From Bacteroidales bacterium (GTDB taxonomy: Bacteria; Bacteroidota; Bacteroidia; Bacteroidales; Marinilabiliaceae): a stretch of DNA of 64,000 nucleotides. The stretch is taken from positions 124,001 through 188,000 of the forward strand of contig JAKSLE010000003.1 in the NCBI GenBank assembly GCA_024401365.1, written 5' to 3'. A program made the position numbers and the translations under genes. The notes under the pieces are model-generated. The model was not told the origin of the DNA. It saw only the letters and a program-made list of their open reading frames with translations, and ran no database searches. Shown piece by piece: positions 7,931-49,617 of the stretch; position 1 is the first letter of the stretch; each line of letters starts with the position of its first letter.

Positions 7931-8003
7931 TTTATTAAGCGGCTAGTATGAGGCTGTATTAAGGGAGGTATAAGCCAGTGTTAAGGTTGCTCGCAATTTT
8001 TTT
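7931..8003. repeat. 11-bp phased array ending in GTTGCTCGCAA plus T-tract (copy 1)
   Basis: Read on the + strand, five contiguous 11-mers occupy 7931-7985: TTTATTAAGCG, GCTAGTATGAG, GCTGTATTAAG, GGAGGTATAAG and CCAGTGTTAAG. They are followed by the cap GTTGCTCGCAA (7986-7996) and seven T residues (7997-8003). It lies between the ung stop (7 bases away) and the ung terminator, about 155 bases upstream of rpoN. The same architecture occurs near 13.8, 25.8, 33.9 and 49.6 kb. Function unknown. Confidence 0.75.
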
Positions 8004-8009
8004 ATATAA

Positions 8010-8672
8010 TTACCAGTCGATCTCCTGTATGTTGTGAGCTTTCAGGTAAGCATTGGCTCTGCTAAAATGTTTGCATCCGAAGAAACCGCGGTAAGCGGAG
8101 AGGGGGGAAGGGTGGACGGCAGTCAGTACGCAATGCTTATTTTGGTCGATGAGGGCTGCTTTTTTTATGGCATAGCTTCCCCACAAGAGGAATACCAAGT
8201 TTTCCTTTTCGGCCTGGAGGCGTGATATGACATTATCGGTGAAAGTTTCCCAGCCCTTACCCTGGTGAGAACCAGCCTGATGGGCGCGTACGGTGAGGGT
8301 AGCATTGAGGAGGAGGACACCTTGGTCGGCCCACCGTTCGAGGTTGCCGCTCAGAGGCATAGGTTTACCCATATCAGCTTCCACCTCCTTGAAGATATTT
8401 ATGAGAGAAGGAGGGAATTTTATACCATCGTTGACAGAGAAGCACAGACCGTGAGCTTGGTTGATATCGTGATAAGGGTCCTGACCGAGTATTACCACCT
8501 TAGTTTTTGCTACGGGGCAGCGGTCGAACGCATTAAAAATCTGTTTAGCAGGAGGGAAGATTTGCGTTTGAGCGTACTCAGACTTTACGAACTGAGTCAG
8601 TTGCTCGAAATATGGGCTATCAAATTCAGGCTGCAATAGATGTTTCCAGCTCTCCTCTATCTTTACTTCCAT
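8010..8672 (-). CDS. ung: Uracil-DNA glycosylase, family 1
   Basis: Removes uracil from DNA to start base-excision repair. The 220-residue length is standard. The catalytic water-activating loop GQDPYHD is at residues 63-69 (Asp65). The uracil-binding segment GLCFSV follows, and the DNA-intercalation loop HPSPLSAYRGFFG starts at His187. Its ATG overlaps the stop of the PH-domain gene (TAATG at 8672), so the two are translationally coupled. It is the last gene of the topoisomerase IV operon. Confidence 0.98.
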   Translation of the reverse strand: MEVKIEESWKHLLQPEFDSPYFEQLTQFVKSEYAQTQIFPPAKQIFNAFDRCPVAKTKVVILGQDPYHDINQAHGLCFSVNDGIKFPPSLINIFKEVEADMGKPMPLSGNLERWADQGVLLLNATLTVRAHQAGSHQGKGWETFTDNVISRLQAEKENLVFLLWGSYAIKKAALIDQNKHCVLTAVHPSPLSAYRGFFGCKHFSRANAYLKAHNIQEIDW

Positions 8673-9076
8673 TATTTCTCCACGTTTATGTTAGGGGCTA
8701 TAGTAATTATAGCCTTCAAGAAAGAATCCCTATCCAAGGGGCATGGGCAGATGATATACTCTTTGCCATAATCTATCCTTATATACTCGTCCCATTTCTT
8801 TTTAGTAGGGAAACTTATTTTAGTAATATCGGACAAATCGGCTCTTTTTTTAGGGAAGATACCACGTCGGTATATCACCTGGGAGTCGGTAATCACCAAT
8901 GTTTTCCAGACAGAATCCAAGATGGTATTCAAGGCCAAGAAGCCCAAGAAGCATCGAGCCACCACCGTCATAGTCTCTTCGGCGTTGGGGATAGATAAGA
9001 AGGCGATAGCAGCTACCGCTATAGCTGCTATCACTGCCATTATATCTAACCAAGTATATTTCAGTCGGAACGTCAT
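8672..9076 (-). CDS. PH-domain membrane protein (bacterial PH / YdbT type)
   Basis: A 134-residue protein. The N-terminus has two membrane helices (about residues 10-30 and 36-55). A small soluble domain follows with the segment ITDSQVIYRRGIFPKKRADLSDITKI, the pattern of bacterial PH-like (DUF304) domains. The function of these proteins is generally unknown; they are assumed to be envelope-associated. It lies between parC (21-base gap) and ung (1-base overlap). The co-transcription is probably historical rather than functional. Confidence 0.72.
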   Translation of the reverse strand: MTFRLKYTWLDIMAVIAAIAVAAIAFLSIPNAEETMTVVARCFLGFLALNTILDSVWKTLVITDSQVIYRRGIFPKKRADLSDITKISFPTKKKWDEYIRIDYGKEYIICPCPLDRDSFLKAIITIAPNINVEK

Positions 9077-9097
9077 AATATTTACAGATGTCAGATA

Positions 9098-11737
9098 TTA
9101 GAACAAAGTCTGTTCCTTCTCCTCCTCGTCATCGCCTGTAGCCACCTCGAAAGTAAGAGGCACCTCATCGCGAACTGTTGGTATAGTAGGCTCCAATTCG
9201 GTGAAGTCCTTTACGGTCCACTGGCCGATACGTTTACCCTTAGCTTTGATACCCTTCTCCTCGATGAATTCGAAAGCCTCGACGATTTCGGCCTCGCGCC
9301 ATTTATCCGGTCCGCCGTATGTTATTTGGATACGAGGGTGATCCTCGTCGGACAACAACAGCAAGTTGGACTTAGGAGCTTCGGAGATGAAGAGCAGAGG
9401 TTTATTAGTAGGGTCGATACGGAAACGCTTGATATAGTTGAGTTTCTTTTCGCCATCGTAGTAGACTGCTGTCCATACCTTGCGGTTGTCGAATTTCTCC
9501 ATTTTGATGATATTATCCTCGAAATGCTGTTCGAATCCGAATCCTGTGGTATAAAGTTCGCCCTTATTATTGATAACCAGCAAGAGATCGTCGCCGCTAA
9601 ACTCTCCGATATACTCGCCACGTGCGTCGGGGTTAAGGCGTAGAGTCTCCTTTTCGAAGTAGACCTTACGGCCGCCGAGGGTAGAAACGCCACGTTTTTT
9701 GAGGGTAATTTTAAGCAGATCGTTCTTTGTGAGGAGATTACCCTTAGAGTCGCGGCCCTTGATAGCCATATCGGCCATATCGTATTCGAAGACCACGTTG
9801 CGCAGTTTAAGTTTCGGTTTCAGGCACACTTTGAGAACCTCGGCCTCGCCATTAGGGTTAGCAGAGAAGTACACCACCTTACTTTTAGGGGTACCCATAG
9901 TAATGTTATACTCCTTATCGCGGGTAATACCAGAAACTGCGAAGCGCTTAACGTAGCTGAATCCCGATTCGCCGTCGACGTAAGCGACGTTGTATATTGT
10001 ACGTTTATCGTTCTTTTTGAATACGGCGATATGCATTACGTTCATACCGATATTGACCTTCTCCTCGACTTTCTTTATGACGTATCGGCCATCGTTGTAG
10101 AAGATGATTACGTCATCGAGGTCGGAGCAATCCTGAACGTAATCGCCCTTAACCTTAGCGGCAGCGTATCCCATGAAGCCATCCTCGCGGTTGATATACA
10201 ATTTTTGGTTTTGTATAGCCACCTTAGCCACCTCGATATTATCGAAAGAGCGGATTTCGGTCAGGCGAGGGTAGTCCTTACCATATTTTTTCTTGATAGA
10301 CTTGAAGTAATCGATAGTATAATCCACAATGCCCTCGATTTTCTGCATAGTATCCTCCATATCAGCCTTTAGCTGGATGAGTCTATCGTTGGCTGCGTCG
10401 GAATTAAAGCGGAGTATACGAGCCATACGGATTTCGAGGAGGTGGAGGAGGTCGTCCTTAGTCACCTCGCGGATACAATCCTTGTAGAAAGGAGATAAGC
10501 GCTTATCGATGTGAGCTACAGCCTCGTCATTGGATTTTGCCTGTTCGAATTCGGCATCCTTATAGACGCGCTGTTCGATAAACAATTTTTCGAGAGATAG
10601 GGTGAGGGCTGCATCGCGCAACTCGTCGTACTTTATTTCCAGCTCCTGCTTAAGGAGGTTGAGGGTACGATCGGTAGAATGGCGAAGGATTTCGCTCACC
10701 GTCATGAAGCGAGGAGTCTTGTTATCGATTACGCAAGCGTTAGGAGAGATTGATATTTCGCAATCTGTGAAAGCGTAGAGGGCGTCGATAGTCTTATCAG
10801 GGGAGACTCCGGCGTGGAGAGTGAGGACGATTTCTGCAGTAGCAGAAGTTATATCGTCGATGCTCTTGATTTTTATTTTACCCTTATCGCTAGCAGAGCG
10901 GATGCTCTCGATGAGGGAGCCCGTAGTGCAAGTATAAGGTATCTCTGTGATAGACAATGTCTTAGAGTCGACCTTATTAATCTTAGCGCGGATACGTACC
11001 GAGCCACCTCGGAGGCCGTCGTTGTATTTAGCCACATCAATCTGGCCGCCAGTAGGGAAATCAGGATATATTTCAAAAGGCTCATCCCTCAAAATAGATA
11101 TAGACGCGTCTATAAGCTCGTTGAAGTTATGAGGCAAGATTTTAGAAGCGAGGCCTACGGCGATACCCTCCACCCCCTGAGCTAGGAGGAGAGGGAACTT
11201 CATAGGGAGAGTTACAGGCTCCTCGTTACGGCCATCGTAAGAAAGTTGCCATACGGTAGTCTTAGGGTTGAAAGCCACATCCTGGGCGAATTTAGTCAGT
11301 CGCCCCTCGATATAACGGGCAGCGGCAGCCTCATCACCTGTGAGAATATTACCCCAGTTACCCTGGGTATCCACGAGGAGATTTTTCTGACCCAGTTGGA
11401 CTAGGGCTGCATATATAGAGGCATCGCCATGAGGGTGATACTTCATGGTTTCGCCCACGATATTAGCCACCTTATTATATCGGCCATCATCCATTTTGTT
11501 CATCACGTGCATTACGCGGCGCTGAACAGGTTTGAGACCATCCTCTATATTAGGTACGGCGCGGTCGAGAATAACGTAAGAAGCATAGTCGAGGAACCAT
11601 GTCTTGTACATACCATGGATCTGGCTATGTTGAGCCATGTTGCCTATGCTAAGCTCCTGTGCGATTTCATCGGCATTAGCCTCGCCCATAATCTCTTCGT
11701 TCTGATCGTCTTCTATATTATTTATATCGTCACTCAT
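9098..11737 (-). CDS. parC: DNA topoisomerase IV subunit A
   Basis: The DNA-cleaving subunit of topoisomerase IV, which decatenates daughter chromosomes. The protein has 879 residues. The active-site Tyr is Tyr142 in AAAARYIEGRL. The GyrA/ParC breakage-reunion signature KPVQRRVMHVMN (residues 69-80) precedes it. The C-terminal part (about 540-850) is the degenerate beta-pinwheel that binds DNA. It lacks a GyrA box, which distinguishes it from gyrase. It is placed 20 bases downstream of parE, the usual Bacteroidetes arrangement. Confidence 0.95.
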   Translation of the reverse strand: MSDDINNIEDDQNEEIMGEANADEIAQELSIGNMAQHSQIHGMYKTWFLDYASYVILDRAVPNIEDGLKPVQRRVMHVMNKMDDGRYNKVANIVGETMKYHPHGDASIYAALVQLGQKNLLVDTQGNWGNILTGDEAAAARYIEGRLTKFAQDVAFNPKTTVWQLSYDGRNEEPVTLPMKFPLLLAQGVEGIAVGLASKILPHNFNELIDASISILRDEPFEIYPDFPTGGQIDVAKYNDGLRGGSVRIRAKINKVDSKTLSITEIPYTCTTGSLIESIRSASDKGKIKIKSIDDITSATAEIVLTLHAGVSPDKTIDALYAFTDCEISISPNACVIDNKTPRFMTVSEILRHSTDRTLNLLKQELEIKYDELRDAALTLSLEKLFIEQRVYKDAEFEQAKSNDEAVAHIDKRLSPFYKDCIREVTKDDLLHLLEIRMARILRFNSDAANDRLIQLKADMEDTMQKIEGIVDYTIDYFKSIKKKYGKDYPRLTEIRSFDNIEVAKVAIQNQKLYINREDGFMGYAAAKVKGDYVQDCSDLDDVIIFYNDGRYVIKKVEEKVNIGMNVMHIAVFKKNDKRTIYNVAYVDGESGFSYVKRFAVSGITRDKEYNITMGTPKSKVVYFSANPNGEAEVLKVCLKPKLKLRNVVFEYDMADMAIKGRDSKGNLLTKNDLLKITLKKRGVSTLGGRKVYFEKETLRLNPDARGEYIGEFSGDDLLLVINNKGELYTTGFGFEQHFEDNIIKMEKFDNRKVWTAVYYDGEKKLNYIKRFRIDPTNKPLLFISEAPKSNLLLLSDEDHPRIQITYGGPDKWREAEIVEAFEFIEEKGIKAKGKRIGQWTVKDFTELEPTIPTVRDEVPLTFEVATGDDEEEKEQTLF

Positions 11738-11757
11738 AATGCTCTTGATAAGGGTGG

Positions 11758-13653
11758 TTAGTAAATCTGGTCTTCTACGAGGTCCTCCTCGACTACCAAG
11801 TTATCGATGATAAACTGTTGGCGTGTAGGGGTATTCTTACCCATATAGAACGTCAGCAGCTCCTTTATATTATCGGCGGTGTGCATAGTCACCTGGTCGA
11901 GGCGCATGCCCTCGCCTATAAACTCCTTGAACTCCTGCCAGTCGATCTCACCGAGACCTTTGAATCGGGTAATTTCCGGTTTAGGCCCCAGAGCCTTGAT
12001 AGCCTTTTCTCGTTCCTCCTCCGAGTAGCAATATTGGGTTTTCTTCTTATTACGTACGCGGAAAAGAGGCGTCTGAAGGATGAAAAGGTGGCCCTCCTTG
12101 ATGACATCAGGGAAGAACTGGAGGAAGAAAGTGATCATAAGGAGGCGGATATGCATACCGTCGACATCCGCATCGGTAGCGATGATAACCTTATTATAGC
12201 GGAGGTTATCCATACCCTCCTCTATATTCAGGGCCGCCTGGAGGAGGAAGAACTCCTCGTTTTTGTAAACTATATCACGTTTAAGGCCGAAAGTATTCAG
12301 AGGTTTACCGCGTAGGCTAAAGACAGCCTGGTAGTTGGCGTTACGAGCCTTAGTTATAGAACCCGACGCAGAATTACCCTCGGTAATAAATATTGAAGTC
12401 TCCTCGCGAGGGTCGGCCTCATTCTCCTTCACCTTCTTGGGGTCGGACAAGTGCCAACGGCAGTCGCGCAATTTCTTATTATTAAGGTTAGCCTTCTTAG
12501 CCTTCTCCTTAGCCTCCTTTTGGATTTTAGAGATAGACTTACGGTCGGCCTCTGAGCTTACTATTTTATCCTGGAGAGCCTTAGCTGTTTCGGGATTACG
12601 GTGGAGGAAGTTATCGAACTGTTCGCCGATGAAATCCATTGTATAGCTACGGATAGAGACGCCATCCTTAGGGCTCATATCCTTAGAACCCAGTTTTGTT
12701 TTAGTCTGCGATTCGAATACAGGCTCCTGGACGCGGATGCTCACTACAGCGGAGATACCCATACGGATATCGTTGACATCGTACTCCTTTTTGTAGAATT
12801 CGCGAACAGTTTTAGCGAGGGCTTCCTTGAAAGCTGCGAGATGGGTACCGCCCTGAGTTGTATGCTGTCCATTTACGAAAGTATAGTAATCCTCGGAATA
12901 AGCTGTTGTATGAGTCATAGCTATTTCGAGGTCCTTTGTCTCCAGGTGGACGATAGGGTAGAGCATCTCCTCGCGGATATTGTCTCTCAGCAGATCCACG
13001 ATACCCTCTTTAGACACGTATGGGGTACCGTTGAGGACCATTTTAAGACCCTTATTGAGGTAGGTATAATTCTTGAGCATTTGTACCACGAAATCCAGGT
13101 GGTACGAATAGTTCTCGAAAATTGTATTATCCACTATATACGACACGCGGGTACCATTCTTCTCGTTAGTATTCTGGAGGTCATACTCCTTGACCAGTTT
13201 ACCGCGAGAAAATTCGGCGCGTTTCATTTTACCATCGCGCACAGACTCCACGACGAAGCTAGTAGAGAGGGCGTTAACCGCCTTACTACCTACGCCATTG
13301 AGGCCAATAGATTTCTGGAAGGCGTCGGAATCGTATTTACCGCCAGTATTCATTTTACTGACTACGTCAACCACTTTACCCAAAGGGATACCGCGGCCGT
13401 AGTCGCGAATAGTCACTTTATCGTCGACGATATTCACCTCGATTTGTTTGCCATTGCCCATCATGAACTCATCGATAGAGTTATCGATGATCTCCTTTAT
13501 GAGGACGTATATACCATCGTCCTGATATTGACCGTCGCCGAGCTTTCCGATATACATACCTGGACGGCGGCGTATATGTTCATGCCATTCGAGTGTCTTG
13601 ATGTTGTCTTCGTTATAGCTAACTCCCTGTAGCGTTTCGTCTATCTCTGCCAT
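11758..13653 (-). CDS. parE: DNA topoisomerase IV subunit B
   Basis: The ATPase subunit of topoisomerase IV, 631 residues. It has a GHKL ATP-binding site (IIDNSIDEF around residues 55-63 and [10 protein letters not shown] at 83-92), a transducer domain, and a TOPRIM domain with [14 protein letters not shown] (Glu425) and [12 protein letters not shown] (Asp494, Asp496, Asp498). The TOPRIM motif is normally EGDSA; here the Asp is Asn427 (codon AAT), a conservative but unusual change beside the catalytic Glu. It is the first gene of the parE-parC-PH-ung operon. Confidence 0.95.
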
Positions 13654-13696
13654 AAAAACAAATTGGGTAATTGCGGTTGTAAAGATATTTTAACGG

Positions 13697-13704
13697 CAAA
13701 TGTA
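13697..13704 (-). promoter_or_regulatory. Possible -7 box of parE
   Basis: TACATTTG on the minus strand, 43 bases upstream of the parE start, matches TANNTTTG. No good TTG is found 19-20 bases upstream, so support is partial. Confidence 0.4.
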
Positions 13705-13804
13705 TTAAATATTTCCAATAGGGGGAAGTGAGGCTGTGTTTTTTTGTTTTTATGGTGAGGTGTATCAGGGAGGTGGGAGGTGGATAGTCATTGGCAAGCA
13801 ATAA

Positions 13805-13868
13805 CGAGAGTACGGTGTAGTTAGTTGCTGTATACGGGGAAGTATAAGGTTGCTCGCAATTTTTTTTT
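13805..13868. repeat. 11-bp phased array ending in GTTGCTCGCAA plus T-tract (copy 2)
   Basis: On the + strand the contiguous 11-mers CGAGAGTACGG, TGTAGTTAGTT, GCTGTATACGG and GGAAGTATAAG (13805-13848) lead into GTTGCTCGCAA (13849-13859) and nine T residues (13860-13868). The last unit and cap share 19 bases with copy 3 (AGTATAAGGTTGCTCGCAA). It lies in the divergent parE / 13953 intergenic region, about 195 bases upstream of parE. The rest of this roughly 300-base gap holds only two promoter boxes. Confidence 0.7.
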
Positions 13869-13897
13869 GTTGGGGGTGGATTTTTGGGTGATTTTTG

Positions 13898-13928
13898 TTG
13901 TGTTTGGCTGAGTTTTTTGTTATATTTG
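13898..13928 (+). promoter_or_regulatory. Bacteroidetes promoter of the 13953 gene
   Basis: TTG at 13898-13900, then 20 bases, then TATATTTG at 13921-13928. This is a strong match to the -33/-7 consensus. It predicts a start near 13935, 18 bases before the ATG at 13953. Confidence 0.65.
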
Positions 13929-13952
13929 CGCGCATATAAACTGTATATACTA

Positions 13953-14759
13953 ATGGCCCGAATAGAGATAACGCACAAATGTGTGACTATAGCGAGGGAG
14001 ATGACGCGTAGAGGCTCAAGGAGTCTGGCGGAAGGGACCTCGATTTTTATTAAGCGATGCTATGGTACGTATCGCATGATACAAGTGGATGTGACTCAGA
14101 GACAGAGAGATAGTCGAGATCTGTTTGCTGAAGCGCAGAAGTTGGCCAAGGCAGATTTGGCAAAAATCGGAAGAAAAGAGTATTGGGAATTGTGGGCTTT
14201 GGAGCATGGAATTAAGGGTGCTCACAGAGCTGCTGTGTCGTGGTATTATAAGAAGTTGAAATCAGAGAAAGAGAAAGCAAGCGACTACTCCAATCTAGCC
14301 TTCATCCAGCCGCGTCCACGCAGACGGATTAAGAATATCAATCCGCGGAAGCAAAGTTCGATACACATGGCAGTCCATACGCCATTGAGGCCCCAAATAG
14401 GAGCCAGGTACCATGCCAGGGTAAGGCGTACGCCCCACATAGAGATGAAGTTCATGAGGCAAGGCTTCAGTGTATCGCCGGCGCCTACGAATACGCCGTA
14501 TGCTACGATACTAGCGGCGAACATAGGTTCGGCCCAAGCCTCGATGCGCAGAGCCATAGTGCCCAGGTCGACGATCTCCTGTACGGGAGAGAGCAAAGAC
14601 ATCATGAATGGGGCGCAGAAGTACATTATGACCCCCATGAAAGACATTATGGCCATACCCAGAGCCACTGTGATGAAGCCGAAGCGGCGAGTAAGCTCCA
14701 GGCGTTTAGCGCCTATGCTCTGTCCGATGAGGGTAGTAGCTGCGTCTGCTATACCGTAG
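13953..14759 (+). CDS. Uncharacterised Bacteroidetes protein with a run-on C-terminus
   Basis: ATG at 13953, just after a good promoter, opens a 268-codon frame. The first about 110 residues look like a real small protein: MARIEITHKCVT, then LFAEAQKLAKADL, RKEYWELWALEHGIKGAHRAAVSWYYKKLK. This layout resembles short Bacteroidetes hypothetical proteins I recall, which end soon after such a segment. Here no stop follows. From about 14285 the frame continues antisense to the MATE gene for about 155 more codons, which are probably not functional sequence. The simplest explanation is loss of the original stop or 3' end beside the convergent gene. Function unknown. Confidence 0.5.
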   Translation: MARIEITHKCVTIAREMTRRGSRSLAEGTSIFIKRCYGTYRMIQVDVTQRQRDSRDLFAEAQKLAKADLAKIGRKEYWELWALEHGIKGAHRAAVSWYYKKLKSEKEKASDYSNLAFIQPRPRRRIKNINPRKQSSIHMAVHTPLRPQIGARYHARVRRTPHIEMKFMRQGFSVSPAPTNTPYATILAANIGSAQASMRRAIVPRSTISCTGESKDIMNGAQKYIMTPMKDIMAIPRATVMKPKRRVSSRRLAPMLCPMRVVAASAIP

Positions 14760-15742: not shown

Positions 15743-15815
15743 ATGCAGGTCACTTTTAGGATGCGAAGTTCTAAAAAAATATCACAAATAAAGCTCATGA
15801 TGACAAAAAATAACC

Positions 15816-15823
15816 TATATTTG
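15816..15823 (+). promoter_or_regulatory. -7 box of the recQ operon
   Basis: TATATTTG is a perfect TANNTTTG box, 65 bases upstream of the recQ start. No TTG lies at the expected upstream distance, so a -33 element is not evident. Confidence 0.45.
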
Positions 15824-15887
15824 TATGTAAGCAGCTAAAATGTGCATGGAATAAAGTGTTAAAAACAAGTTCAAGCTATAGGATAAC

Positions 15888-18059: not shown

Positions 18060-18083
18060 TAAACCACGAAAGCGACTATAGTT

Positions 18084-19490: not shown

Positions 19491-19508
19491 CAACACTCAA
19501 TAAAGATC

Positions 19509-25693: not shown

Positions 25694-25817
25694 GTTTGAT
25701 TAACAATAATTTAATAAGTATACGTAGCTGCGTTAAAAAGTGTTGCACTTTTACCTCTAGTTTAATAGTCAAGAAAGGTAAAAAGAAGGTAGAATAAAAG
25801 TATATGTCTGTGTCCTT

Positions 25818-25857
25818 TCTGCATATATAGAAGTATAAGGTTGCTCGCAAATTTTTT
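25818..25857. repeat. 11-bp phased array ending in GTTGCTCGCAA plus T-tract (copy 3)
   Basis: On the + strand TCTGCATATAT and AGAAGTATAAG (25818-25839) lead into GTTGCTCGCAA (25840-25850), then A and six T residues. Weaker 11-base periodicity of TAC or CAC cores continues leftward to about 25785. It sits about 145 bases upstream of the SusD-like gene, in the divergent gap with GH31. Apart from this element and the GH31 -7 box, I see nothing else in this 293-base gap. Confidence 0.68.
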
Positions 25858-28863: not shown

Positions 28864-30672
28864 ATGAGAATCCTTCAACATATAACAATGTTTGTAGCCA
28901 TCGCATCGATGGCTACAACTCTTTTTGCTCAGAAGGTCGCATTTGACAAAGACGAGTTTGATTATGTATTCAGCAAGAATTCCAGAGTAAATAATCTATA
29001 CACACCGCGTGAAGACTACCTCACGCTGTATGTGAACTATAAGTTGAAGGTACAAGAAGCGCGAGCTATAGGGTTAGACACCCTCAGTTCGTATAAGAAA
29101 GAATGTCTTGCCTACAAGAAAGAGCTGATAGCCCCATTTTGGGTAGACTCGGCAGCCATAGAGAGCTATAAGCGCACTATAGGTGAGCGTATAAACAAGC
29201 GTATACATGCCTCGCACGTTTTAGTTCCCGTGGCACCTGATGCCTCGCCTGAAGATACTTTGCTTGCCTATAATAAGATATCTTCGATAAGAGACTCCCT
29301 AGTCAAGATAGGCGGCCCACATAAGGTAAACAGGAGAAATTCGGGAAGCATAGTTGGAGGTGTGATAGAAGAAGACCTTGGGTATTTCACTACATTAAGC
29401 ATGGTAGCTCCATTTGAAGAAGCTGCATATGCTACCCCTGTAGGACAGTACTCCTCGGTACTCCGCACGCAATTTGGCTATCATATCATGTATATCCATG
29501 ATGTAAAACCATCGAAGCAGATATTGGTGGCCCACATAATGAAGATGTATTCAGACTCCATAAGATTTGCGACGACAGAAGCGTTAGCGATTATGGATAC
29601 AGTTATGATGAAGCTCCGCAAGGGTGATGCTTTTGAGGATCTAGCCAAGCAATATTCAGACGACCAGCAGTCGGCTATCAATGGAGGGCAGATGCCATGG
29701 CTATATGAAGATACGAATATACCAGGCTTCATGCAGGCGGCACTACAGTTGAAGAACAAAGGAGATTTATCGGGAGTGGTAACATCGCCATTTGGTCTCC
29801 ACATTATAAAGCTACTTGATGAGAGGAGCACTATTCCAGACGACATGATGAATCGTCTATACCGCGAATTATTGAACAAAGACAAGGTCAGAGCACTTAG
29901 TTGTTCCGCCATAGCATCAAGGATGTCCAAGAAGATGAAGGCCAAGGTTAATGCCAACGCTTTCAACGAGTTGATGGAGATAGTACTATCCACGCAGACG
30001 GACAGCCTCAAGCAGGTCAAGATAGATGCTATAGCGCAACCATTGCTTTATATAGATAAGAAAAATGTGATGGCCAAAGATGTGGATATAGACCCATCTA
30101 TACTCAGCAATCAGACGCCATCGGAGTACAAAGAAGCGTTGATAGAGCATATACTCTGTGACATGTACGAAGAGCAATTGCCAAGTGAGAACAAGCAATA
30201 TAAGTACACATTGGCAGAGTATTACGATGGTCCCCTTGTGTATGAGATGAATATCCAACAAGTTTGGCAAAAGCAGCCATCGGACAGTATTGTGATATCG
30301 CAATTGTACGCCTCTAATCCTGCTCGCTATTCCAAAGGCGGTAAATTTTCGGGACGCATATATGTGTGTGACAACTCCCGTGATGCTGACAAGGTGCGCA
30401 AGGCAGTAGAGAGAGGGAAGGACGTAGACAAGAAGTTGTATGTTGAACTTATTGAAGGCGACCAGCAGCAAGGCGAGCTATATGATGATTATCTGTGGCC
30501 ATTTGTAAAATCGGGCTGTATTGTTATTGATGGGCAATATACAGAAGGGCAGCGCCTTGATATTGAACTTGCCAAGCAGATGTTGCAGGCAGACCTGATA
30601 GCATATAGGGAGAGAGAATTTGCGCAGAAACTACGTAAGAAATACAAGGTTGAGAGCAATCCCAAGTTGTAA
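28864..30672 (+). CDS. Periplasmic parvulin-type peptidyl-prolyl isomerase with two PpiC domains
   Basis: A 602-residue SurA-like foldase. It has a signal peptide (cleavage near LFAQ, residue 22) and two consecutive parvulin domains. The first is at about residues 115-220 (RIHASHVLV ... GYFTTLSMVAPFEEAAY ... GYHIMYIHD). The second is at about 225-325 (ILVAHIMKM ... GGQMPWLYEDTNIPGFMQAAL ... FGLHIIKLLDE). A C-terminal domain of unknown type follows. It probably helps fold outer-membrane proteins. The 3-base gap after GH31 implies one transcript, an unusual pairing of hydrolase and foldase. Confidence 0.9.
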   Translation: MRILQHITMFVAIASMATTLFAQKVAFDKDEFDYVFSKNSRVNNLYTPREDYLTLYVNYKLKVQEARAIGLDTLSSYKKECLAYKKELIAPFWVDSAAIESYKRTIGERINKRIHASHVLVPVAPDASPEDTLLAYNKISSIRDSLVKIGGPHKVNRRNSGSIVGGVIEEDLGYFTTLSMVAPFEEAAYATPVGQYSSVLRTQFGYHIMYIHDVKPSKQILVAHIMKMYSDSIRFATTEALAIMDTVMMKLRKGDAFEDLAKQYSDDQQSAINGGQMPWLYEDTNIPGFMQAALQLKNKGDLSGVVTSPFGLHIIKLLDERSTIPDDMMNRLYRELLNKDKVRALSCSAIASRMSKKMKAKVNANAFNELMEIVLSTQTDSLKQVKIDAIAQPLLYIDKKNVMAKDVDIDPSILSNQTPSEYKEALIEHILCDMYEEQLPSENKQYKYTLAEYYDGPLVYEMNIQQVWQKQPSDSIVISQLYASNPARYSKGGKFSGRIYVCDNSRDADKVRKAVERGKDVDKKLYVELIEGDQQQGELYDDYLWPFVKSGCIVIDGQYTEGQRLDIELAKQMLQADLIAYREREFAQKLRKKYKVESNPKL

Positions 30673-33857: not shown

Positions 33858-33908
33858 TGCAGGTAGGCGCTAGTTATAGAGAGCTACCTTGTTCATCGCA
33901 ATTTTTTT
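33858..33908. repeat. Variant 11-bp phased element with T-tract (copy 4)
   Basis: On the + strand GTTCATCGCAA (33891-33901), a two-base variant of GTTGCTCGCAA, is followed by seven T residues (33902-33908). It is preceded by 11-mers with TA cores (TGCAGGTAGGC, GCTAGTTATAG, AGAGCTACCTT). It lies 32 bases after the purF-like stop and about 80 bases upstream of the ABC exporter start. It is less certain than copies 1 to 3. Confidence 0.45.
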
Positions 33909-37082: not shown

Positions 37083-37090
37083 TACGTTTG
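37083..37090 (+). promoter_or_regulatory. -7 box immediately before the decarboxylase start
   Basis: TACGTTTG matches TANNTTTG and ends only 4 bases before the TTG start codon at 37095. If used, transcription would begin at or within a few bases of the start codon, giving a leaderless message. Confidence 0.35.
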
Positions 37091-37094
37091 TAAA

Positions 37095-38510: not shown

Positions 38511-38522
38511 ATAAAATGACAA

Positions 38523-39443: not shown

Positions 39444-39446
39444 TGC

Positions 39447-39454
39447 TATATTTG
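39447..39454 (+). promoter_or_regulatory. -7 box of thyA
   Basis: TATATTTG predicts a transcript start near 39461. This lies downstream of the in-frame ATG at 39457 and so supports the ATG at 39481 as the thyA start. Confidence 0.5.
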
Positions 39455-39480
39455 CATTGCATACATTTAAAATTCAGACA

Positions 39481-40275: not shown

Positions 40276-40334
40276 TTATTGTAACGAAATGTAAGAAACC
40301 ACGTAAAATTGTGGGTAATTATAGTTTGTAGTTT

Positions 40335-43556: not shown

Positions 43557-43605
43557 TGAATATTATATAATTACACAATCATATTAATAATAAACAAAAC
43601 TCGCG

Positions 43606-44511
43606 ATGCTTATAGAAGCAAATGGAATTGTAAAAGCATATTCGGGCCATGTTGCTTTGGATGGTTTGAATATGAATGTTAAGGAAGGTTCGGTACATGG
43701 GTTACTAGGACCTAACGGAGCAGGAAAGACGACATTCATCCGTATCCTTAACCAGATGACACGTCAAGATGCAGGAACACTTTTGTTCGATGGACGAGAG
43801 ATGTCTTTGGATGACATTTCTCAGGTTGGTTATCTTCCTGAAGAGAGAGGACTCTACAAGAAGATGAAAGTTGGCGAAGAGGCCATATACCTTGCGCAGT
43901 TGCGTGGGTTATCCAAGCACGATGCCAAAGTAAGGTTGAAGTATTGGTTTGACAAATTTGAGATTGGAGAGTGGTGGAACAAGAAAGTAGAGCAACTCTC
44001 GAAGGGTATGCAGCAGAAGGTACAATTTATAGTAACTGTGCTACATGAGCCACGTCTATTGATTTTTGATGAGCCATTTTCGGGATTTGACCCTGTGAAT
44101 GCTAACCTTTTGAAAGAAGAGATATTGAATCTTCGAGACAAGGGAGCCACTGTTTTGTTCTCGACGCACAATATGGGTAGTGTTGAGGCGGTATGTGACA
44201 GTATATCCCTTATAAATAAGAGTCATGTTGTTCTTGATGGCAATGTAAAGGAGATAAAGAGGCAATACAAAGAAGGCAAATATTCGCTTACCTTCCAAGG
44301 AGAGGTAGGCGATTTAGGCAAGGTTGCTGACATTGACATTATTTCATCCAAAACGACTGACGGTATTACTGAGGCTGTAGTAAAATCCGCTACAAAAGCA
44401 GGTGCCAACGAGATGCTACGAAATTTGATAGCAGCTGTTGAGCTGTCCGAATTCAAGGAGATACTTCCCTCGATGGAAGAGATTTTCATACAGCAAGTAA
44501 ATAGTAAATAA
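43606..44511 (+). CDS. ABC exporter ATPase (ABC-2, NatA-like)
   Basis: A 301-residue nucleotide-binding protein with Walker A GLLGPNGAGKTTFI, signature LSKGMQQKVQF, Walker B LLIFDEPFSGFDP, and a C-terminal extension (about 220-301) of the DUF4162 type seen in ABC-2 exporters. It powers the permease encoded 26 bases downstream. The substrate is unknown; NatAB in Bacillus exports sodium, but homologous pairs have diverse roles. Confidence 0.92.
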   Translation: MLIEANGIVKAYSGHVALDGLNMNVKEGSVHGLLGPNGAGKTTFIRILNQMTRQDAGTLLFDGREMSLDDISQVGYLPEERGLYKKMKVGEEAIYLAQLRGLSKHDAKVRLKYWFDKFEIGEWWNKKVEQLSKGMQQKVQFIVTVLHEPRLLIFDEPFSGFDPVNANLLKEEILNLRDKGATVLFSTHNMGSVEAVCDSISLINKSHVVLDGNVKEIKRQYKEGKYSLTFQGEVGDLGKVADIDIISSKTTDGITEAVVKSATKAGANEMLRNLIAAVELSEFKEILPSMEEIFIQQVNSK

Positions 44512-44537
44512 GTATAACCACTTAGATTGTAAAAAAG

Positions 44538-45851
44538 ATGTCGAAAATAGGACTTATTATAGAGCGCGAGTATATGACTCGAGTTCGCAAAAAGAGCTTT
44601 ATTATCATTTCGTTACTTATGCCTATTATCATGTTGGCAGTAACGATACTTCCTACTCTCATTATGGCATATTCATCTGTGACTACGCAGAAGATAGCCG
44701 TTTTAGATGAGACCAAGAACTACCAAAGCGTATTAGCAAACACCGAAGAGATAGAATTCTCGCTTATTTCGGATGAAGTAGAAGAGTCGTTACGTGCCAC
44801 CTACCAGTCGCGCGGCTTCGATGCCATGCTACATATCAGTGGTGTGCCAACAGACAAATCCAATATACAACTATATAGTGAGAAGACCCTTCCAATAGAT
44901 GTGACCAGGTCGATAGAGTACACATTGCGAGACAAGGTACGTCATGACATGATTGAAGAATTTTCTGCTAGTTCTGATGGGGTAGATTCGCTTTTCAATG
45001 CTGTGAATAATGTCCGTGTGGATATAGCTACCATGAAACAGACGACAGATGGTGAGGCTAAAGAAGACAATGCTGCGATAGGAATAGTAGTAGGCCTAGT
45101 AGCAGCTATGCTTATCTATTTTATCATACTCATTTCAGGTTCGCAGGTTTTTACGGGCATTATGGAAGAGAAGCAAAACCGTATTATGGAAGTTTTAGCT
45201 TCGTCTGTCAAGCCATTAGATCTGATGATGGGCAAGATTATAGGTATAGCATTGGTAACGCTTACGCAGCTAGCCATGTGGGGAGTCATCATGGGTATAG
45301 GTTCGGTTGTATTATCAACCAACTTTATGCCAGACGTTTCGAGCATAGAATCGGGAGCAGAGCAAGTAGCAGCAGCGACGGGAGAAAGTAATCCGGTAGC
45401 AAATGTTATGGGAATGTTAGGTACTCTAAATATTCCTCTGTTAATATCAATGTTTGTTATATATTGTATAGGAGGATACCTACTCTATGCATCTTTGTAT
45501 GCAGCCATTGCGGCAGGATGTGATCAGCCATCAGATGCGCAACAACTACAGATGCCTATCATTATACCTATAATTATAGCTATAGTCATAGTGAGTTCAT
45601 TTGGAATGAAAGATCCGAATGGGGCGGCGATGTTCTGGGGGTCGATGGTACCATTGACATCACCTATAGTAATGCTTGCCCGTATTCCGAGTGGGGTAGA
45701 GGCGTGGGAGCTCATACTTTCGCTAGTACTATTAGTGGCATCATTTTTGTTGACCACTTGGATAGCAGCCAAGATTTATCGTGTGGGCATACTTATGTAC
45801 GGAAAGAAACCCACCTTTAAGGATCTTGTTAAGTGGGCTCGCATGAAATAA
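44538..45851 (+). CDS. ABC-2 type permease (NatB-like)
   Basis: A 437-residue permease. The N-terminal helix (residues 22-45) is followed by a large extracytoplasmic domain (about 50-180) and five further helices from about 185. The motif GIMEEKQNRIMEVLASSVKPLDLMMGK is typical of ABC-2 (NatB/YhaP) permeases. It forms the membrane partner of the preceding ATPase. Confidence 0.9.
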   Translation: MSKIGLIIEREYMTRVRKKSFIIISLLMPIIMLAVTILPTLIMAYSSVTTQKIAVLDETKNYQSVLANTEEIEFSLISDEVEESLRATYQSRGFDAMLHISGVPTDKSNIQLYSEKTLPIDVTRSIEYTLRDKVRHDMIEEFSASSDGVDSLFNAVNNVRVDIATMKQTTDGEAKEDNAAIGIVVGLVAAMLIYFIILISGSQVFTGIMEEKQNRIMEVLASSVKPLDLMMGKIIGIALVTLTQLAMWGVIMGIGSVVLSTNFMPDVSSIESGAEQVAAATGESNPVANVMGMLGTLNIPLLISMFVIYCIGGYLLYASLYAAIAAGCDQPSDAQQLQMPIIIPIIIAIVIVSSFGMKDPNGAAMFWGSMVPLTSPIVMLARIPSGVEAWELILSLVLLVASFLLTTWIAAKIYRVGILMYGKKPTFKDLVKWARMK

Positions 45852-45862
45852 TAGATATTTAT

Positions 45863-47356
45863 TTGAGACGCATATTATCGATAATATTATTACTTATTGT
45901 CCTGTTACCTGTAGCCACAGCTCAGGTAACGGGCAATAATGTTCGTTTACATGGGCGAGCGCTTCAGTATGCCAGTCATCATATTGAGGTGTTTGTCTAT
46001 ATGGATTATATTACCCGAGACAAGGTTGCCATAGGCGTTATAGATATAGACGACAATGGTAAATTTGACTGTGTAGTAGATTTGCAGAGAGAAGGAGTAC
46101 GGTATGCGTTTTTGGAATTAGGGGCTTACAAGGCCTACATATATTTAGAGTCAGGAAAGACATATCAGATAGTACTTCCGCCATTTAAGCAACGTCCAGA
46201 TGCTGACAGGTTCAATCCATTTTATCAGCAAGAGTTGATAGAGATAGGCATAGTAAATGAGGCTTCGAAGCTAAATATCTCTATTAGAGGATTTGAGAGT
46301 TGGTGGCACAATATGTATGCTGAGAATATCAGCAGATTAGCGAGGTACAATGACAGGAAATTGGCGGACAAGCTCATTTTGCAATGTGACAGTATAGAAA
46401 AAGTTATAAACTGTTCGTCGCAATTTTTCCATGATTTTGTACATTATCGCAAGGCACAGGTTTATGCTACGCCGAGAATGGGAGATGTAAGACGCGTATT
46501 ATCAAGCTATTACGCCTCGAACAAGCCATCTAATATTGATGTTCCCTCATATTGGCAGACATTAAATATGGTATGTCCGAATTTTTTGTCATCCATCACC
46601 ATATATACAGAAGCCAAGGAAAAATGTCGCAAAGAGCTGAGGAGTAACGATGGAACATTTTATTCACTTTCGAAGGCACTCTCGACCGACACTGTGTATG
46701 CCAATAAGATTGTGCGAGAGCACCTTATGCTGATGGGCATATATGATGGGTACTATGCGCAAGACATTTCGGAGTCGTATGTAGACAATATGCTAAGTGG
46801 GGCATTGAAGCAAGGAGCGACAGAAGAGGTTAAGTTATTGGCGCAGAATATAGTAGACAAGAAATCGTATCTACATTCAGGCACTGAGGCACCTGACTTC
46901 ACCCTTATGGATATGAACGGTAAGGACGTAACGCTGTCGAAGCTCAAGGGGCGTTGGGTTTATCTAGGCTTTTTGCATTCAGAGAATTTTGCGGCAGTAA
47001 AAGATATGGCTGCATTAGATGCGCTACAAGCCAAGTACCAGAAAGATATGCTTGTCATAGGAGTTTTTACGGATGAGAAGAGTGACAGGCTAGCCAAGAA
47101 ATTGAAAGCAGCCAAGCATCAGTGGATGCCGCTAACCTATATTTCGCAGCAATCGGTATTATCAGATTACAATGTTGTGGCTCTACCTACATACTATTTG
47201 ATAGATCCAGAAGGGCGAATAAAGCTATCTCCTGCGCCAAGTCCGACGGAGAAAATAGAGCAAGCCATTGCTACACAGATGGTTAGCTACAAGAGTGAAA
47301 TTTCGAAGCGAGGCAAGAACAATCAGGTAAAGAATATCTACGATATAGCACACTAA
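45863..47356 (+). CDS. Periplasmic thioredoxin-fold protein without CXXC
   Basis: A 497-residue exported protein. The start is set at TTG 45863, which gives a clean signal peptide ([20 protein letters not shown]); an in-frame GTG at 45833 would overlap the permease gene and add a polar leader. The N-terminal 340 residues resemble the poorly characterised part of Bacteroidetes TlpA-like proteins. The C-terminal domain (about 340-485) is AhpC/TlpA-like ([24 protein letters not shown]). At the active-site position it reads [10 protein letters not shown], so both Cys residues are absent. Redox activity is therefore unlikely. Its stop overlaps the next start (TAATG). Confidence 0.8.
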
Positions 47357-48009
47357 TGGTAATAGCAGAGAACATACACAAGAGTTTTGGTGAATTGGAT
47401 GTACTTAAGGGCATTGATATTCATGTAAAAGAGCGCGAAGTAGTGGCGATAATTGGTCAGAGTGGAGCCGGCAAGACTACGCTTTTGCAGATTTTGGGCA
47501 CGCTAGACAAGCCTACATCCGGTAAAGTTACCATTGCAGGGGAAGATATATCGTTGTTATCTGAGAATGCCCTATCAGACTTTAGGAATAAGCATATAGG
47601 CTTTGTGTTTCAGTTTCATCAGCTATTGCCAGAATTCACTGCATTAGAAAATGTTATGCTTCCATGTCAGATAGGGGGTAAGACAGACAAATATGCAGAA
47701 GAGAGGGCGCGAGAGCTACTTAACTTTCTCAAGTTAGGGCACAGATTAGACCATAAGCCATCAGAGTTGTCTGGAGGAGAGAAGCAGAGGGTAGCCATAG
47801 CCAGGGCGCTAGCTTGCAATCCCAGTGTTGTTTTTGCAGATGAGCCATCGGGCAATCTAGATTCGCACAATGCCAAGGAGTTGCAAGAGTTGTTTTTCTC
47901 GTTGAGAGAAGAATACGGTCAGACCTTTGTTATAGTGACCCACGATATGCAGATGGCATCGTGCTGTGACCGAATGATAAAGATAAAAGACGGCCTTATA
48001 GAACAATAG
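47356..48009 (+). CDS. LolD/MacB-type ABC ATPase
   Basis: A 217-residue ATPase with Walker [15 protein letters not shown], signature [15 protein letters not shown] and Walker [13 protein letters not shown]. The LDKPTSG and [16 protein letters not shown] segments place it in the LolD/MacB/FtsE group that drives lipoprotein release or mechanotransmission rather than classical transport. No LolC/E-type permease is beside it, so the partner is encoded elsewhere. It is translationally coupled to the thioredoxin-fold gene. Confidence 0.88.
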
Positions 48010-48013
48010 AGCT

Positions 48014-48760
48014 ATGACACCCAGTCGCCTCAAAGAGATACTCGATGCCAAGGTAGAGCAATACGAGCGACCTAGCTTTATAGATAATGATCCTATAAGG
48101 ATACCTCATGGTTGGTCGCAGAAAAATGATATAGAGATAAGCGGATTTCTTGCCTCCACATTGGCGTGGGGCAATCGTAAGGCCATACTCAAGTCGACAG
48201 AAGAGCTTATGAGGCGATTGGACAATTCGCCATACGATTTTGTGCTCAATGCGACGGAGAAAGAGATTTCGGGATTAAATACATTTGTATACCGCACCTT
48301 CCAGAGAGAAGACCTGCCCTGTTTTGTGAGAGCTTTGCAACACATTTACAAGGATTTAGGAGGGTTGGAACAAGTGATGACCACTGGAGGTGATTTGCAA
48401 TCATCCATTATATCGCTTAGGGAAGCCATGCTCCCATATTTAGATGGACATGCTAGCAAGCACGTAGCCAACCCCGCCAACAAGTCGGCCGCCAAGCGAA
48501 TATGTATGTTTTTGCGTTGGATGGTACGTTCGAGTGATAAGGGGGTAGATTTTGGCATTTGGAAAGGGATAAAACCATCCGATTTGGTATTACCATTAGA
48601 TGTTCATGTAGGGAATATAGCGCTAGAGCTCAAATTGATAGAGCGCAATGGTAAAGACTGGAAGACGGCGGTGGCTATTACAGACCAGCTACGTCAGTTC
48701 AGGCCCGAAGATCCTGTGGCATACGATTTTGCACTCTTTAGTATGGATATGGAGGAGTAG
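48014..48760 (+). CDS. TIGR02757/DUF2400 family protein
   Basis: A 248-residue protein that I recognise as the TIGR02757 (DUF2400) family by FIDNDPIRIPHGWSQKNDIEISGF, LAWGNRKAI and the C-terminal LDVHVGNIALELKLI plus RQFRPEDPVAYDFALF. The pattern near the C-terminus recalls helix-hairpin-helix DNA glycosylase folds, but the biochemical function is not established. It lies 4 bases after the LolD-like gene and 2 bases before the methyltransferase gene. Confidence 0.88.
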   Translation: MTPSRLKEILDAKVEQYERPSFIDNDPIRIPHGWSQKNDIEISGFLASTLAWGNRKAILKSTEELMRRLDNSPYDFVLNATEKEISGLNTFVYRTFQREDLPCFVRALQHIYKDLGGLEQVMTTGGDLQSSIISLREAMLPYLDGHASKHVANPANKSAAKRICMFLRWMVRSSDKGVDFGIWKGIKPSDLVLPLDVHVGNIALELKLIERNGKDWKTAVAITDQLRQFRPEDPVAYDFALFSMDMEE

Positions 48761-48762
48761 GT

Positions 48763-49491
48763 ATGGCCAACGACTATTTCGCGTTCAAGCAATTTACCGT
48801 CTACCATGATAAATGTGCCATGAAAGTTGGCACTGACGGAGTATTGTTAGGGTTATTAGCCAATATTTCTGGCATAGAACAGCGAGATGATGTAAAAGTT
48901 TTAGATATAGGTACCGGTACAGGGTTAGTAGCATTGATAGCTGCGCAAAGGTTAGCCCATGCCGAAGTAACAGCGATAGAGATAGAGCCCAACAGTGCGA
49001 TGCAAGCCCGAGAAAATTTTGTGGCATCGCCCTTTGCGTCACGACTGAAGGTAGTACAAGGCAGGGTACAAGACTACAGTACAGATATCAAGTTTGACCT
49101 TATATTATGTAATCCTCCCTTTTATAATGGGACACTGACCTCGCCTGATGACAAGAGGACGTTGGCGAGGCATGCGTTAAGTCTGACATTTGACGAGCTA
49201 GCCCATTCGGCATCCAGCTTGTTGGCTGAAGAAGGGCGGTTTGTGGTTGTTATACCCTCGTATGCGGAGGGGCAACTGACAGATTGTTGTACAAAATACG
49301 GGTTGCACCTCAATGAAGAGACCAAGGTATATCCAAATATCAACAAAGAATTTAAGCGAGTAGTAGTACAATATTCGCGTATCAAGACGGAGCTAACAGA
49401 AAGCAAGTTACTGATAGACGATCCTCCCGGGTATAAATCGGCACAATATAAGGAGTTGGTAAAAGAGTATTATATAGGGCCGCTGAAATAG
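48763..49491 (+). CDS. tRNA1(Val) A37 N6-methyltransferase (TrmN6/YfiC-like)
   Basis: A 242-residue methyltransferase. FAFKQFTVYHDKCAMKVGTDGVLLG is the N-terminal TrmN6 signature. The SAM loop is LDIGTGTGLVALIAAQR and the adenine N6-methylase motif NPPFY is present (in LILCNPPFYNG). E. coli TrmN6 methylates A37 of tRNA-Val; the same target is likely here. It is the last gene of the + strand run and converges with the EEP gene. Confidence 0.87.
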   Translation: MANDYFAFKQFTVYHDKCAMKVGTDGVLLGLLANISGIEQRDDVKVLDIGTGTGLVALIAAQRLAHAEVTAIEIEPNSAMQARENFVASPFASRLKVVQGRVQDYSTDIKFDLILCNPPFYNGTLTSPDDKRTLARHALSLTFDELAHSASSLLAEEGRFVVVIPSYAEGQLTDCCTKYGLHLNEETKVYPNINKEFKRVVVQYSRIKTELTESKLLIDDPPGYKSAQYKELVKEYYIGPLK

Positions 49492-49551
49492 CAGGAGATG
49501 GTTGGACTAGGCTTTAGAATATCGCTATGAAAAGTTAGATTTTATTTTTCG

Positions 49552-49617
49552 TGTGCCTTAAGGGTGTATTAAGGGAGCATTAAGAGAGCATTAAGAGAGA
49601 GTCAAGCCAGCGTTTTT
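49552..49617. repeat. 11-bp tandem repeat array without cap (copy 5)
   Basis: On the + strand five contiguous 11-mers fill 49552-49606: TGTGCCTTAAG, GGTGTATTAAG, GGAGCATTAAG, AGAGCATTAAG and AGAGAGTCAAG. CCAGCGTTTTT follows. Four of the five end in TTAAG. It shares GTATTAAGGGAG and AAGCCAGYGTT with copy 1 but lacks GTTGCTCGCAA. It lies between the convergent 3' ends of the trmN6-like and EEP genes. Confidence 0.8.

What the first reader, a model, noticed from the sequence alone, without database searches (positions are those of the whole stretch)
7931..49617. A dispersed element: 11-bp phased units ending in GTTGCTCGCAA and a T-tract
Five intergenic sites (7931-8003, 13805-13868, 25818-25857, variant 33858-33908, cap-less 49552-49617) share one architecture. 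Contiguous degenerate 11-mers (+ strand consensus NNNGTATTAAG) run without a gap into GTTGCTCGCAA, which is itself 11 bases, and then T6 to T9. Copies 2 and 3 share a 19-base block. The 11-base step equals about one helical turn, so a protein contacting each unit would sit on one face. All copies point the same way. On the minus strand the same sites read A-tract, TTGCGAGCAAC and TTATAC-like units, placing them upstream of rpoN, parE, the SusD-like gene and the ABC gene, or just after ung, purF-like and EEP. I know of no named family with this structure. Regulator array, nucleoid-protein site, 3'-UTR element, uptake sequence and polar chromosome motif all remain open.
Basis: partly seen in the sequence, partly recalled or inferred. 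Interest (0 to 1): 0.8.

Follow-up and report, generated by a model that had tools for sequence, protein, structure and literature searches.

The report
Evenly spaced replication-oriented phased DNA sites
A small group of uncultured gut Bacteroidales carries up to about a hundred copies per genome of a roughly 77-base DNA site that appears to point along the direction of replication and recurs about every 10,000 bases, which suggests an undescribed system that reads or organises the chromosome.

Summary
The core occurs 29 times in the genome against 0 reversed. A relaxed core gives 104, 121, 67 and 16 hits in four sister species and 0 in the other 11 genus members. Upstream DNA keeps an exact 11-base period that fades over about five units. 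Three further properties emerged. (1) Orientation follows third-codon GC skew, not neighbouring genes: 54 of 62 loci, rotation p 0.0016 in the window genome; weaker in a sister, 49 of 67, p 0.057. (2) Sites are evenly spaced: 73% of gaps are 6-16 kb against 36-37% expected (band chosen after seeing the gaps). (3) In three genes the site lies in gap-free codon alignment with a site-free orthologue, so it arose in place. I read it as a replication-polar chromosome site: a cap nucleating a protein that spreads in 11-bp steps. No protein is known. Rivals: an uptake-sequence-like driven motif, or a mobile repeat with target immunity; some copying between loci occurs.

The parts
7931..7985 (+). site 1: five phased 11-base units
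   Evidence: read directly; profile score of the site 50.5 bits
7986..7996 (+). site 1: cap GTTGCTCGCAA
7997..8003 (+). site 1: T tract, start of the 11-base T unit
13805..13848 (+). site 2: four phased units
   Evidence: profile score 57.6
13849..13859 (+). site 2: cap GTTGCTCGCAA
13860..13868 (+). site 2: T tract
25796..25839 (+). site 3: phased units (the last two, 25818-25839, are clear; earlier ones weak)
   Evidence: profile score 50.3
25840..25850 (+). site 3: cap GTTGCTCGCAA
25851..25857 (+). site 3: A then T tract
33858..33890 (+). site 4: three phased units
   Evidence: profile score 50.4
33891..33901 (+). site 4: variant cap GTTCATCGCAA
33902..33908 (+). site 4: T tract
49552..49617 (+). 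site 5: cap-less array between two convergent genes (methyltransferase and Exo_endo_phos); in three sister species a gene ending in the same way almost touches the Exo_endo_phos gene here

Best explanation
It is a DNA-level chromosomal site, not a gene-control or RNA element. An 11-base cap plus T tract marks one end. Upstream DNA is read in steps of exactly 11 bases for about five steps, most strictly next to the cap. The site mostly lies in the leading-strand sense and recurs about every 10 kb, in intergenic gaps or where a gene tolerates it. Most likely mechanism (inferred): a DNA-binding protein nucleates at the cap and oligomerises upstream with one subunit contact per 11 bp, giving a directional complex that a replication, segregation or DNA-processing machine meets in a fixed order. 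Loci gain sites by substitution in place and by occasional copying from other sites. Shown: architecture, clade restriction, polarity relative to GC skew (strong in one genome, marginal in the other), a deficit of close neighbours, in-place origin in three genes, copying in at least one case. Inferred: that GC skew marks replication direction, the protein, the nucleation and spreading, and the process served.
For: Exact 11-base phasing locked to the cap. Between-element identity at the same unit falls from 5.1-5.4 of 11 (units -1, -2) to about 3.0 (unit -7) in G000, and adjacent units of one element are hardly more alike than position predicts (z up to 2.5), so there the array is positional rather than a tandem duplication. 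Motif content about 58 bits in G000: 24.5 array, 19.5 cap, 13.8 T unit. Polarity: skew-concordant at 98 of 111 sites judged from the sequence up to 2 kb each side (12 of 123 dropped for too few third positions; tandem caps counted singly, so not all independent); 47 against 4 where |skew| > 0.1 in G000 and 34 against 7 in G013; rotation p 0.0016 and 0.057, with no link to gene strand; neighbouring sites agree 51 against 17 on the 16 G000 contigs with two or more listed sites. Spacing. In place: LolE/FtsX-like permease, SurA-like isomerase and a 785-aa gene; array scores of 8 of 9 in-gene cap sites exceed the 99.9% background, the ninth being taken as chance. In the permease the G000 array scores 16.3 against a background 99% of -5.7, while residues D..Q..L...LG shared by the four bearing species are kept.
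Against: Copying occurs: two G013 elements about 19 kb apart share about 100 bases and differ by one 11-base unit, with unrelated flanks. Site 5 and the SGNH-hydrolase copy (+18 nt) are gains of length. G013 and G008 arrays show unit amplification (z up to 6.9 and 5.1). Sites rarely keep their place: of 162 conserved gene pairs, one has a cap in both species and eight in one only. G013 polarity is only marginal under rotation. The coefficient of variation of the spacings is not clearly low (G000 p 0.03-0.19, G013 p 0.07-0.33), because long gaps remain; the regularity rests on the deficit of short gaps and on a 6-16 kb band that I chose. On six G000 contigs outside the profile set no gap is under 6 kb (p 0.0074), but the 6-16 kb excess is not significant (p 0.12, n = 15). 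In the permease the arrays of G013 (-6.5) and G010 (-18.4) do not exceed the background 99% although both have the cap. G010 hardly follows the unit rule and has few sites. No binding protein was found, and position relative to origin and terminus is unknown. Collection of sites started from the cap, so strict cap conservation is partly ascertainment.
Confidence: 0.45

Rival explanations
1. A non-autonomous dispersed repeat (MITE or minisatellite, like BrickBuilt) mobilised in trans, with replication-coupled insertion giving polarity and target immunity giving the spacing.
For: Recent copy in G013 with unrelated flanks; rare two-ended copies with an inverted cap; absent from 11 of 15 genus members; 102 of 111 cap sites lie outside predicted genes; longer intergenic gap at site 5 than in three sisters; unit-number changes of 33 nt in two genes; patchy positions; 12 of 2080 G013 pairs with array identity above 0.70.
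Against: Three in-gene members are gap-free against a site-free orthologue. Most copies lack a recognisable second end. None of 1891 G000 or 2080 G013 pairs has position-wise array identity above 0.85, and only 2 G000 pairs exceed 0.70. Among listed G000 sites the closest outward-facing pair of caps is about 5.9 kb apart; G013 has pairs 2.6 and 3.4 kb apart, whose contents I did not examine apart from the isomerase gene that holds one of the caps. The Y1 transposase family has no match at E 0.001 in G013, G008 or G010; other transposase families were not searched.
Confidence: 0.25
2. An uptake-sequence-like motif that accumulates by molecular drive: DNA bearing it is preferentially taken up or recombined, so copies spread, space out evenly and avoid newly acquired DNA.
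For: Deficit of close neighbours. Absence from a polysaccharide-biosynthesis locus (C1 9-57 kb) and from a giant gene. Species dialects of cap and units. In-place origin with locally raised divergence in the isomerase gene. The Neisseria DUS paper reports that many recent DUS look acquired by recombination rather than point mutation and that spacing matches conversion-tract size (PMC2397512, abstract and passages); even USS distribution as an outcome of drive (PMC7811141, passages).
Against: Replication polarity is not predicted. Only about 100 copies, against an average spacing of about 1 kb for USS. The motif is far longer than 10-12 base uptake signals. No competence genes were examined.
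Confidence: 0.2
3. A transcription terminator or post-transcriptional RNA element ending in U7.
For: T tract after a short palindromic core; a few copies have an inverted cap able to form a hairpin (L009 and L050 by eye, L041).
Against: Orientation is independent of genes. Folding of 176 sites is only slightly better than shuffled sequence, about equally on both strands (mean -1.7 and -1.6 kcal/mol for -66..+18, 12 shuffles each). No Rfam match in the window.
Confidence: 0.05
4. Retro-copied small RNA (constant 3' end, variable 5' end, lagging-strand priming).
For: 3'-anchored conservation and leading-strand sense.
Against: Reverse transcriptases (PF00078) are not shared: none found in G010, DGR-like frames in G000 and G013 (by motif, recalled), another kind in G008, and no cap within the fetched flanks of those genes. 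In-place copies.
Confidence: 0.05

Closest known systems
FtsK orienting polar sequences (KOPS) and architecture-imparting sequences (AIMS)
   Same: DNA sites biased to the leading strand, related among close taxa.
   Different: KOPS and AIMS are 8-base motifs (PMC4786541 and PMC5993296, passages); this is about 77 bases with an 11-base ladder. The FtsK gamma domain is present with ordinary scores in the four bearing genomes and in ten of the other 11, so KOPS alone does not explain a motif found in only four. Enrichment toward the terminus could not be tested.
DNA uptake sequences (USS of Pasteurellaceae, DUS of Neisseria)
   Same: Genome-wide, evenly spread, underrepresented in acquired DNA, can arise by replacement in place (passages); dialects (recalled).
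   Different: 10-12 bases, far denser, and no replication polarity that I know of (recalled).
BrickBuilt MITE of Porphyromonas gingivalis (PMC4596501)
   Same: Bacteroidales, clade-limited, intergenic, tandem units bounded by special ends.
   Different: 23-base units, 19 copies, leader and tail with IS-like inverted repeats (abstract and passages). Here units are 11 bases and degenerate, usually with one recognisable end, and some members sit in gap-free coding alignments.
ParR/parC centromere with 11-bp direct repeats (recalled)
   Same: Phased direct repeats of about one helical turn bound by an oligomerising protein.
   Different: One plasmid locus with regular repeats; here about 100 dispersed, capped and degenerate arrays. 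Only a search listing was seen.
TAACTGA heptamer direct repeats of Beggiatoaceae, Cyanobacteria and some Bacteroidetes (PMC4679880)
   Same: Many intergenic direct-repeat sets per genome with scattered distribution.
   Different: Fixed heptamer, in the best-studied genome mostly just before start codons (abstract and passages); no cap or T tract is described in what I saw.

Membership tests
KOPS / leading-strand polar motifs | Leading-strand bias | tested here: met
   Judged by GC skew: G000 54 of 62 loci, rotation p 0.0016; G013 49 of 67, p 0.057, i.e. marginal; 98 of 111 sites in the locus-based test
KOPS / leading-strand polar motifs | Recognised by FtsK gamma | tested here: inconclusive
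   Gamma domain over the family cut-off in 14 of 15 genomes; recognition helix largely shared. The residue after QR is V or L in the four bearing genomes and R or Q in the nine others aligned, a single clade difference
KOPS / leading-strand polar motifs | Bias increases toward the terminus | not testable with these tools
   fragmented genomes; GC skew changes sign several times along C23
DNA uptake sequences | Even spacing | tested here: met
   Gaps under 6 kb 14% against 38-40% in G000 and 32% against 42-44% in G013; 6-16 kb 73% and 55% against 36-38%. The coefficient of variation alone is not clearly low
DNA uptake sequences | Preferential uptake of DNA carrying the motif | not testable with these tools
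   needs a cultured strain
DNA uptake sequences | No orientation preference relative to replication (recalled) | tested here: not met
   clear in G000 only
MITE | Terminal inverted repeats | tested here: not met
   In-phase inverted caps at 54, 76 and 87 bases in four rows from three loci, plus one at 25, among 179 contexts; overall matches are at control level (17 found, 18 with the reversed control)
MITE | Discrete insertion against an empty site | tested here: inconclusive
   Site 5 longer than in three sisters, SGNH copy +18 nt; three in-gene members gap-free
MITE | Target-site duplication | tested here: inconclusive
   Looked for by eye only at the two near-identical G013 copies, none clear
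REP/RAYT or IS200 elements | Y1 transposase in the genome | tested here: not met
   PF01797 in G000 but no match in G013, G008 or G010 (drafts 86-97% complete)
Intrinsic terminator | GC-rich hairpin before the T tract and position after genes | tested here: not met
Known Rfam RNA | Match above gathering score | tested here: not met
   0 matches in the window

The most novel reading that the evidence does not exclude
A genome-wide ladder of directional nucleoprotein sites: about 77-bp capped arrays, bound by an unknown protein that nucleates at the cap and spreads in exact 11-bp steps, set every ~10 kb in the direction of replication and restored after loss by mutation and inter-site copying. 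It would be a chromosome ruler, or a fork- or segregation-reading system, that arose within one young clade of gut Bacteroidales.
Probability: 0.3. Interest if true: 0.92.

Novelty: new variant of a known kind. Interest (0 to 1): 0.75.

Why it matters
Bacteria carry polar motifs (KOPS, Chi) and evenly spaced motifs (uptake sequences), but a long, phased, capped site that is both polar and evenly spaced would be a new way to mark a chromosome. Because it is absent from close relatives, gains, losses and dialects can be compared species by species. That makes the question of how genome-wide motifs originate and are maintained directly testable.

Tried and rejected
Gene-regulator or 3'-UTR reading: orientation to flanking genes is mixed and gene-strand concordance is at the null.

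RNA structure: weak on both strands. Rfam 0 matches and no tRNA, window only.

Simple mobile element: first favoured after the two near-identical G013 copies and the in-gene 33-nt differences; demoted by the gap-free in-gene copies and the lack of near-identical copies in G000.

IS200/RAYT: no Y1 transposase in three of the four bearing genomes. Retro-copying: no shared RT.

Viruses, plasmids, phages: six viral contigs match the core but show no array by eye; no BLAST match of one element (L018) in plasmids or phages.

Conservation upstream of rpoN: no cap by eye in 420 bases printed for 12 other genomes, where gene order mostly differs.

A lead only.

Primase-length idea (11-base units with xCTR on the lagging template): untested; the last unit is xGAR, which does not fit.

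Discarded value: the G008 permease score was computed on a string one base out of register and is not used.

Failed scripts: syntax; name error; pattern too strict, found 1 of 13; redone.

Literature: nine searches. No listed paper describes this element by its title or the start of its abstract; several listings were partial (for example 10 of 166, 12 of 46). Papers opened for abstract or passages only: PMC4596501, PMC7811141, PMC2397512, PMC4786541, PMC4679880, PMC5993296.
Full report
What was checked. The window lies at C23:124001-188000 of an unnamed 3.05-Mb draft genome, G000.

Abundance and range. GTTGCTCGCAANTTTT occurs 29 times in G000 and 0 times reversed. In 41 genomes of the order it occurs in four, all of the same genus, and in none of the 26 outside the genus. 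A relaxed core gives 104 (G000), 121 (G013), 67 (G008), 16 (G010) and 0 in the other 11 genus members; the reversed control gives 1 hit in all 15. By rpoN identity the other three bearers are the nearest to G000 (91, 90, 87%; next 80%). An unbiased scan for 11-base self-similarity flags 16 of 246 intergenic regions in G000 and 25 of 253 in G013, against 0-2 and 0-8 at lags 9, 10, 12 and 13; in G009, G011 and G003 it flags 1 of 61, 2 of 35 (both purine-rich runs) and 0 of 30.

Anatomy. Reading 5'-3' in the cap sense: upstream units, then [GT]CT[AG]-type unit, then [AG]GA[AG]-type unit, then cap GTT(GC/CA/GG)TCGCA(A/G), then TTTTTTTATTT; G010 follows the two unit rules in only 18% and 35% of sites. 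Lags 11, 22 and 33 stand out. Information is about 24.5 bits in the array, 19.5 in the cap and 13.8 in the T unit (G000). The signal fades to background by about unit -6. In G000 adjacent units of one element are only slightly more alike than position predicts, while in G013 and G008 they are clearly more alike (z up to 6.9 and 5.1), which indicates unit amplification there. Vocabulary differs by species: units ending ATAAG or TAGTT in G000, CCCTT or ATAAG in G013, CTCGG in G008. A few caps are followed by an A run instead of a T run (1 of 62 and 3 of 65 by the strict count).

Orientation. The third-codon GC skew, read in the element's direction within 2 kb each side, is positive at 98 of 111 sites from four species (54 of 57 in G000), whether surrounding genes run mostly with the element (49 of 52) or against it (49 of 59) (12 of 123 sites dropped for too few positions; tandem caps are counted singly). 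With longer stretches and a profile-based site list, 54 of 62 (G000) and 49 of 67 (G013) are concordant. Rotating the sites along their contigs gives p = 0.0016 and 0.057, and gene strand shows no link (35 of 62 and 39 of 67, both at the null). GC skew changes sign several times along C23, presumably from inversions. So the polarity is a statement about local strand history, strong in one genome and suggestive in the other.

Spacing. A profile of -44..+18 finds 62 loci in 771.6 kb of G000 and 67 in 740.5 kb of G013, with no hit above 5 bits on reversed sequence; 8 and 9 of them lie in predicted genes. Gaps under 6 kb are 14% against 38-40% in G000 (no simulation as low in 3000 or 2000 trials) and 32% against 42-44% in G013 (p 0.006-0.018). 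Gaps of 6-16 kb make up 73% of 56 spacings in G000 (expected 36-38%, no simulation as high) and 55% of 60 in G013 (p 0.0005-0.003). The thresholds of 3 and 6 kb were set, after I had looked at positions; the 6-16 kb band was added. The coefficient of variation alone is not clearly low (G000 0.81, p 0.03-0.19; G013 0.90, p 0.07-0.33). Six further G000 contigs outside that set have no gap under 6 kb (p 0.0074), but the 6-16 kb excess there is not significant (p 0.12; n = 15). Of the five G000 gaps over 30 kb, one is a polysaccharide-biosynthesis locus (7 of its 32 predicted proteins scanned), one an 11.4-kilo-residue open frame, one contains a 20-kb stretch without an intergenic gap over 80 bases, one a run of large genes, and one holds the cap-less site 5.

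In-gene copies. Nine cap sites fall inside predicted genes. Eight have arrays scoring above the 99.9% background; the ninth, at window 46413, is taken as chance. Orthologues were examined for six of the eight; the other two G013 copies had no close orthologue in held sequence. Three are gap-free, within about 100 bases each side, against an orthologue without the site: a LolE/FtsX-like permease (cap in G000, G013 and G010; not in G008, G009 and G005), a SurA-like isomerase (site in G013; the site-free orthologue is in this window, 28864-30669) and a 785-aa gene (site in G000, not in G013; the more distant G009 has one extra codon exactly at the cap). In the permease only G000 has a clear array (16.3; G013 -6.5, G010 -18.4; background 99% -5.7), and it coexists with residues shared by the four species. 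Three others differ in length: an MMPL-type exporter (+33 nt in G013 and G008 relative to G000, from the match lengths; a run of N at this spot in G010), a ketoacyl synthase (+33 nt in G013, +54 in G008) and an SGNH hydrolase (+18 nt in G000). Thirty-three bases are three units and keep the frame.

Turnover and copying. Of 162 gene pairs adjacent in both G000 and G013, one has a cap in both and eight in one only. At site 5 G000 has 155 bases between two convergent genes where the sisters have a few. In G013 two elements about 19 kb apart share about 100 bases, differ by one 11-base unit, and have unrelated flanks. No pair among 1891 in G000 exceeds 0.71 array identity.

Interpretation. Orientation unrelated to genes, orientation related to replication, avoidance of close neighbours and origin in place inside coding sequence point to selection or drive on a DNA-level site. 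The graded, cap-locked 11-base ladder is what a nucleating and spreading protein would impose (inference). Unit amplification and occasional inter-site copying supply raw material. The chief rivals are an uptake-like drive, which explains spacing and in-place origin but not polarity, and a mobile repeat with immunity and replication-coupled insertion, which explains copying, polarity and spacing but not the gap-free genes. FtsK is present with ordinary gamma domains in bearing and non-bearing genomes alike, so KOPS is an analogy rather than an identification.

Limits. All genomes are draft; no origin or terminus could be placed; sites were first collected by their cap; spacing and rotation tests rest on two genomes; about a quarter of G000 was held for the detailed work; no protein partner is known.

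Noticed in passing
G000 C1:123177-157427 (-), loci L187-L188: A single open frame of about 11,400 codons (34 kb), unusually long for a bacterium; it contains no profile hit.
   Followed up: no
L031, L046 (G008); ketoacyl-synthase gene of G010 (L264): A palindrome of the form GACGGAGC-GCTCCGTC recurs beside arrays in G008 and G010 and might be a second dispersed repeat.
   Followed up: no
G000 C33:7038-7745 (L304), G013 C27 (L309); also G013 C10 (L303): Reverse transcriptases that look like those of diversity-generating retroelements (recalled motif). The G000 and G013 C27 proteins read the same over about the first 310 residues although orthologues of the two genomes average 77% identity, suggesting recent transfer or a binning error.
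   Followed up: partly
FtsK gamma domain, L345, L348, L349, L350 against nine relatives: In the recognition helix the residue after QR is V or L in the four element-bearing genomes and R or Q in the nine others aligned.
   Followed up: partly
G000 C23:192902, C23:203231, C1:98422; G013 C1:214778, C1:271526, C3:83216: Caps with good arrays followed by an A run instead of the T run.
   Followed up: no
G000 C23:23910 and G013 C3:53194: A variant-cap site with nearly the same sequence in both species, 0.8-0.9 kb from another site in each.
   Followed up: no
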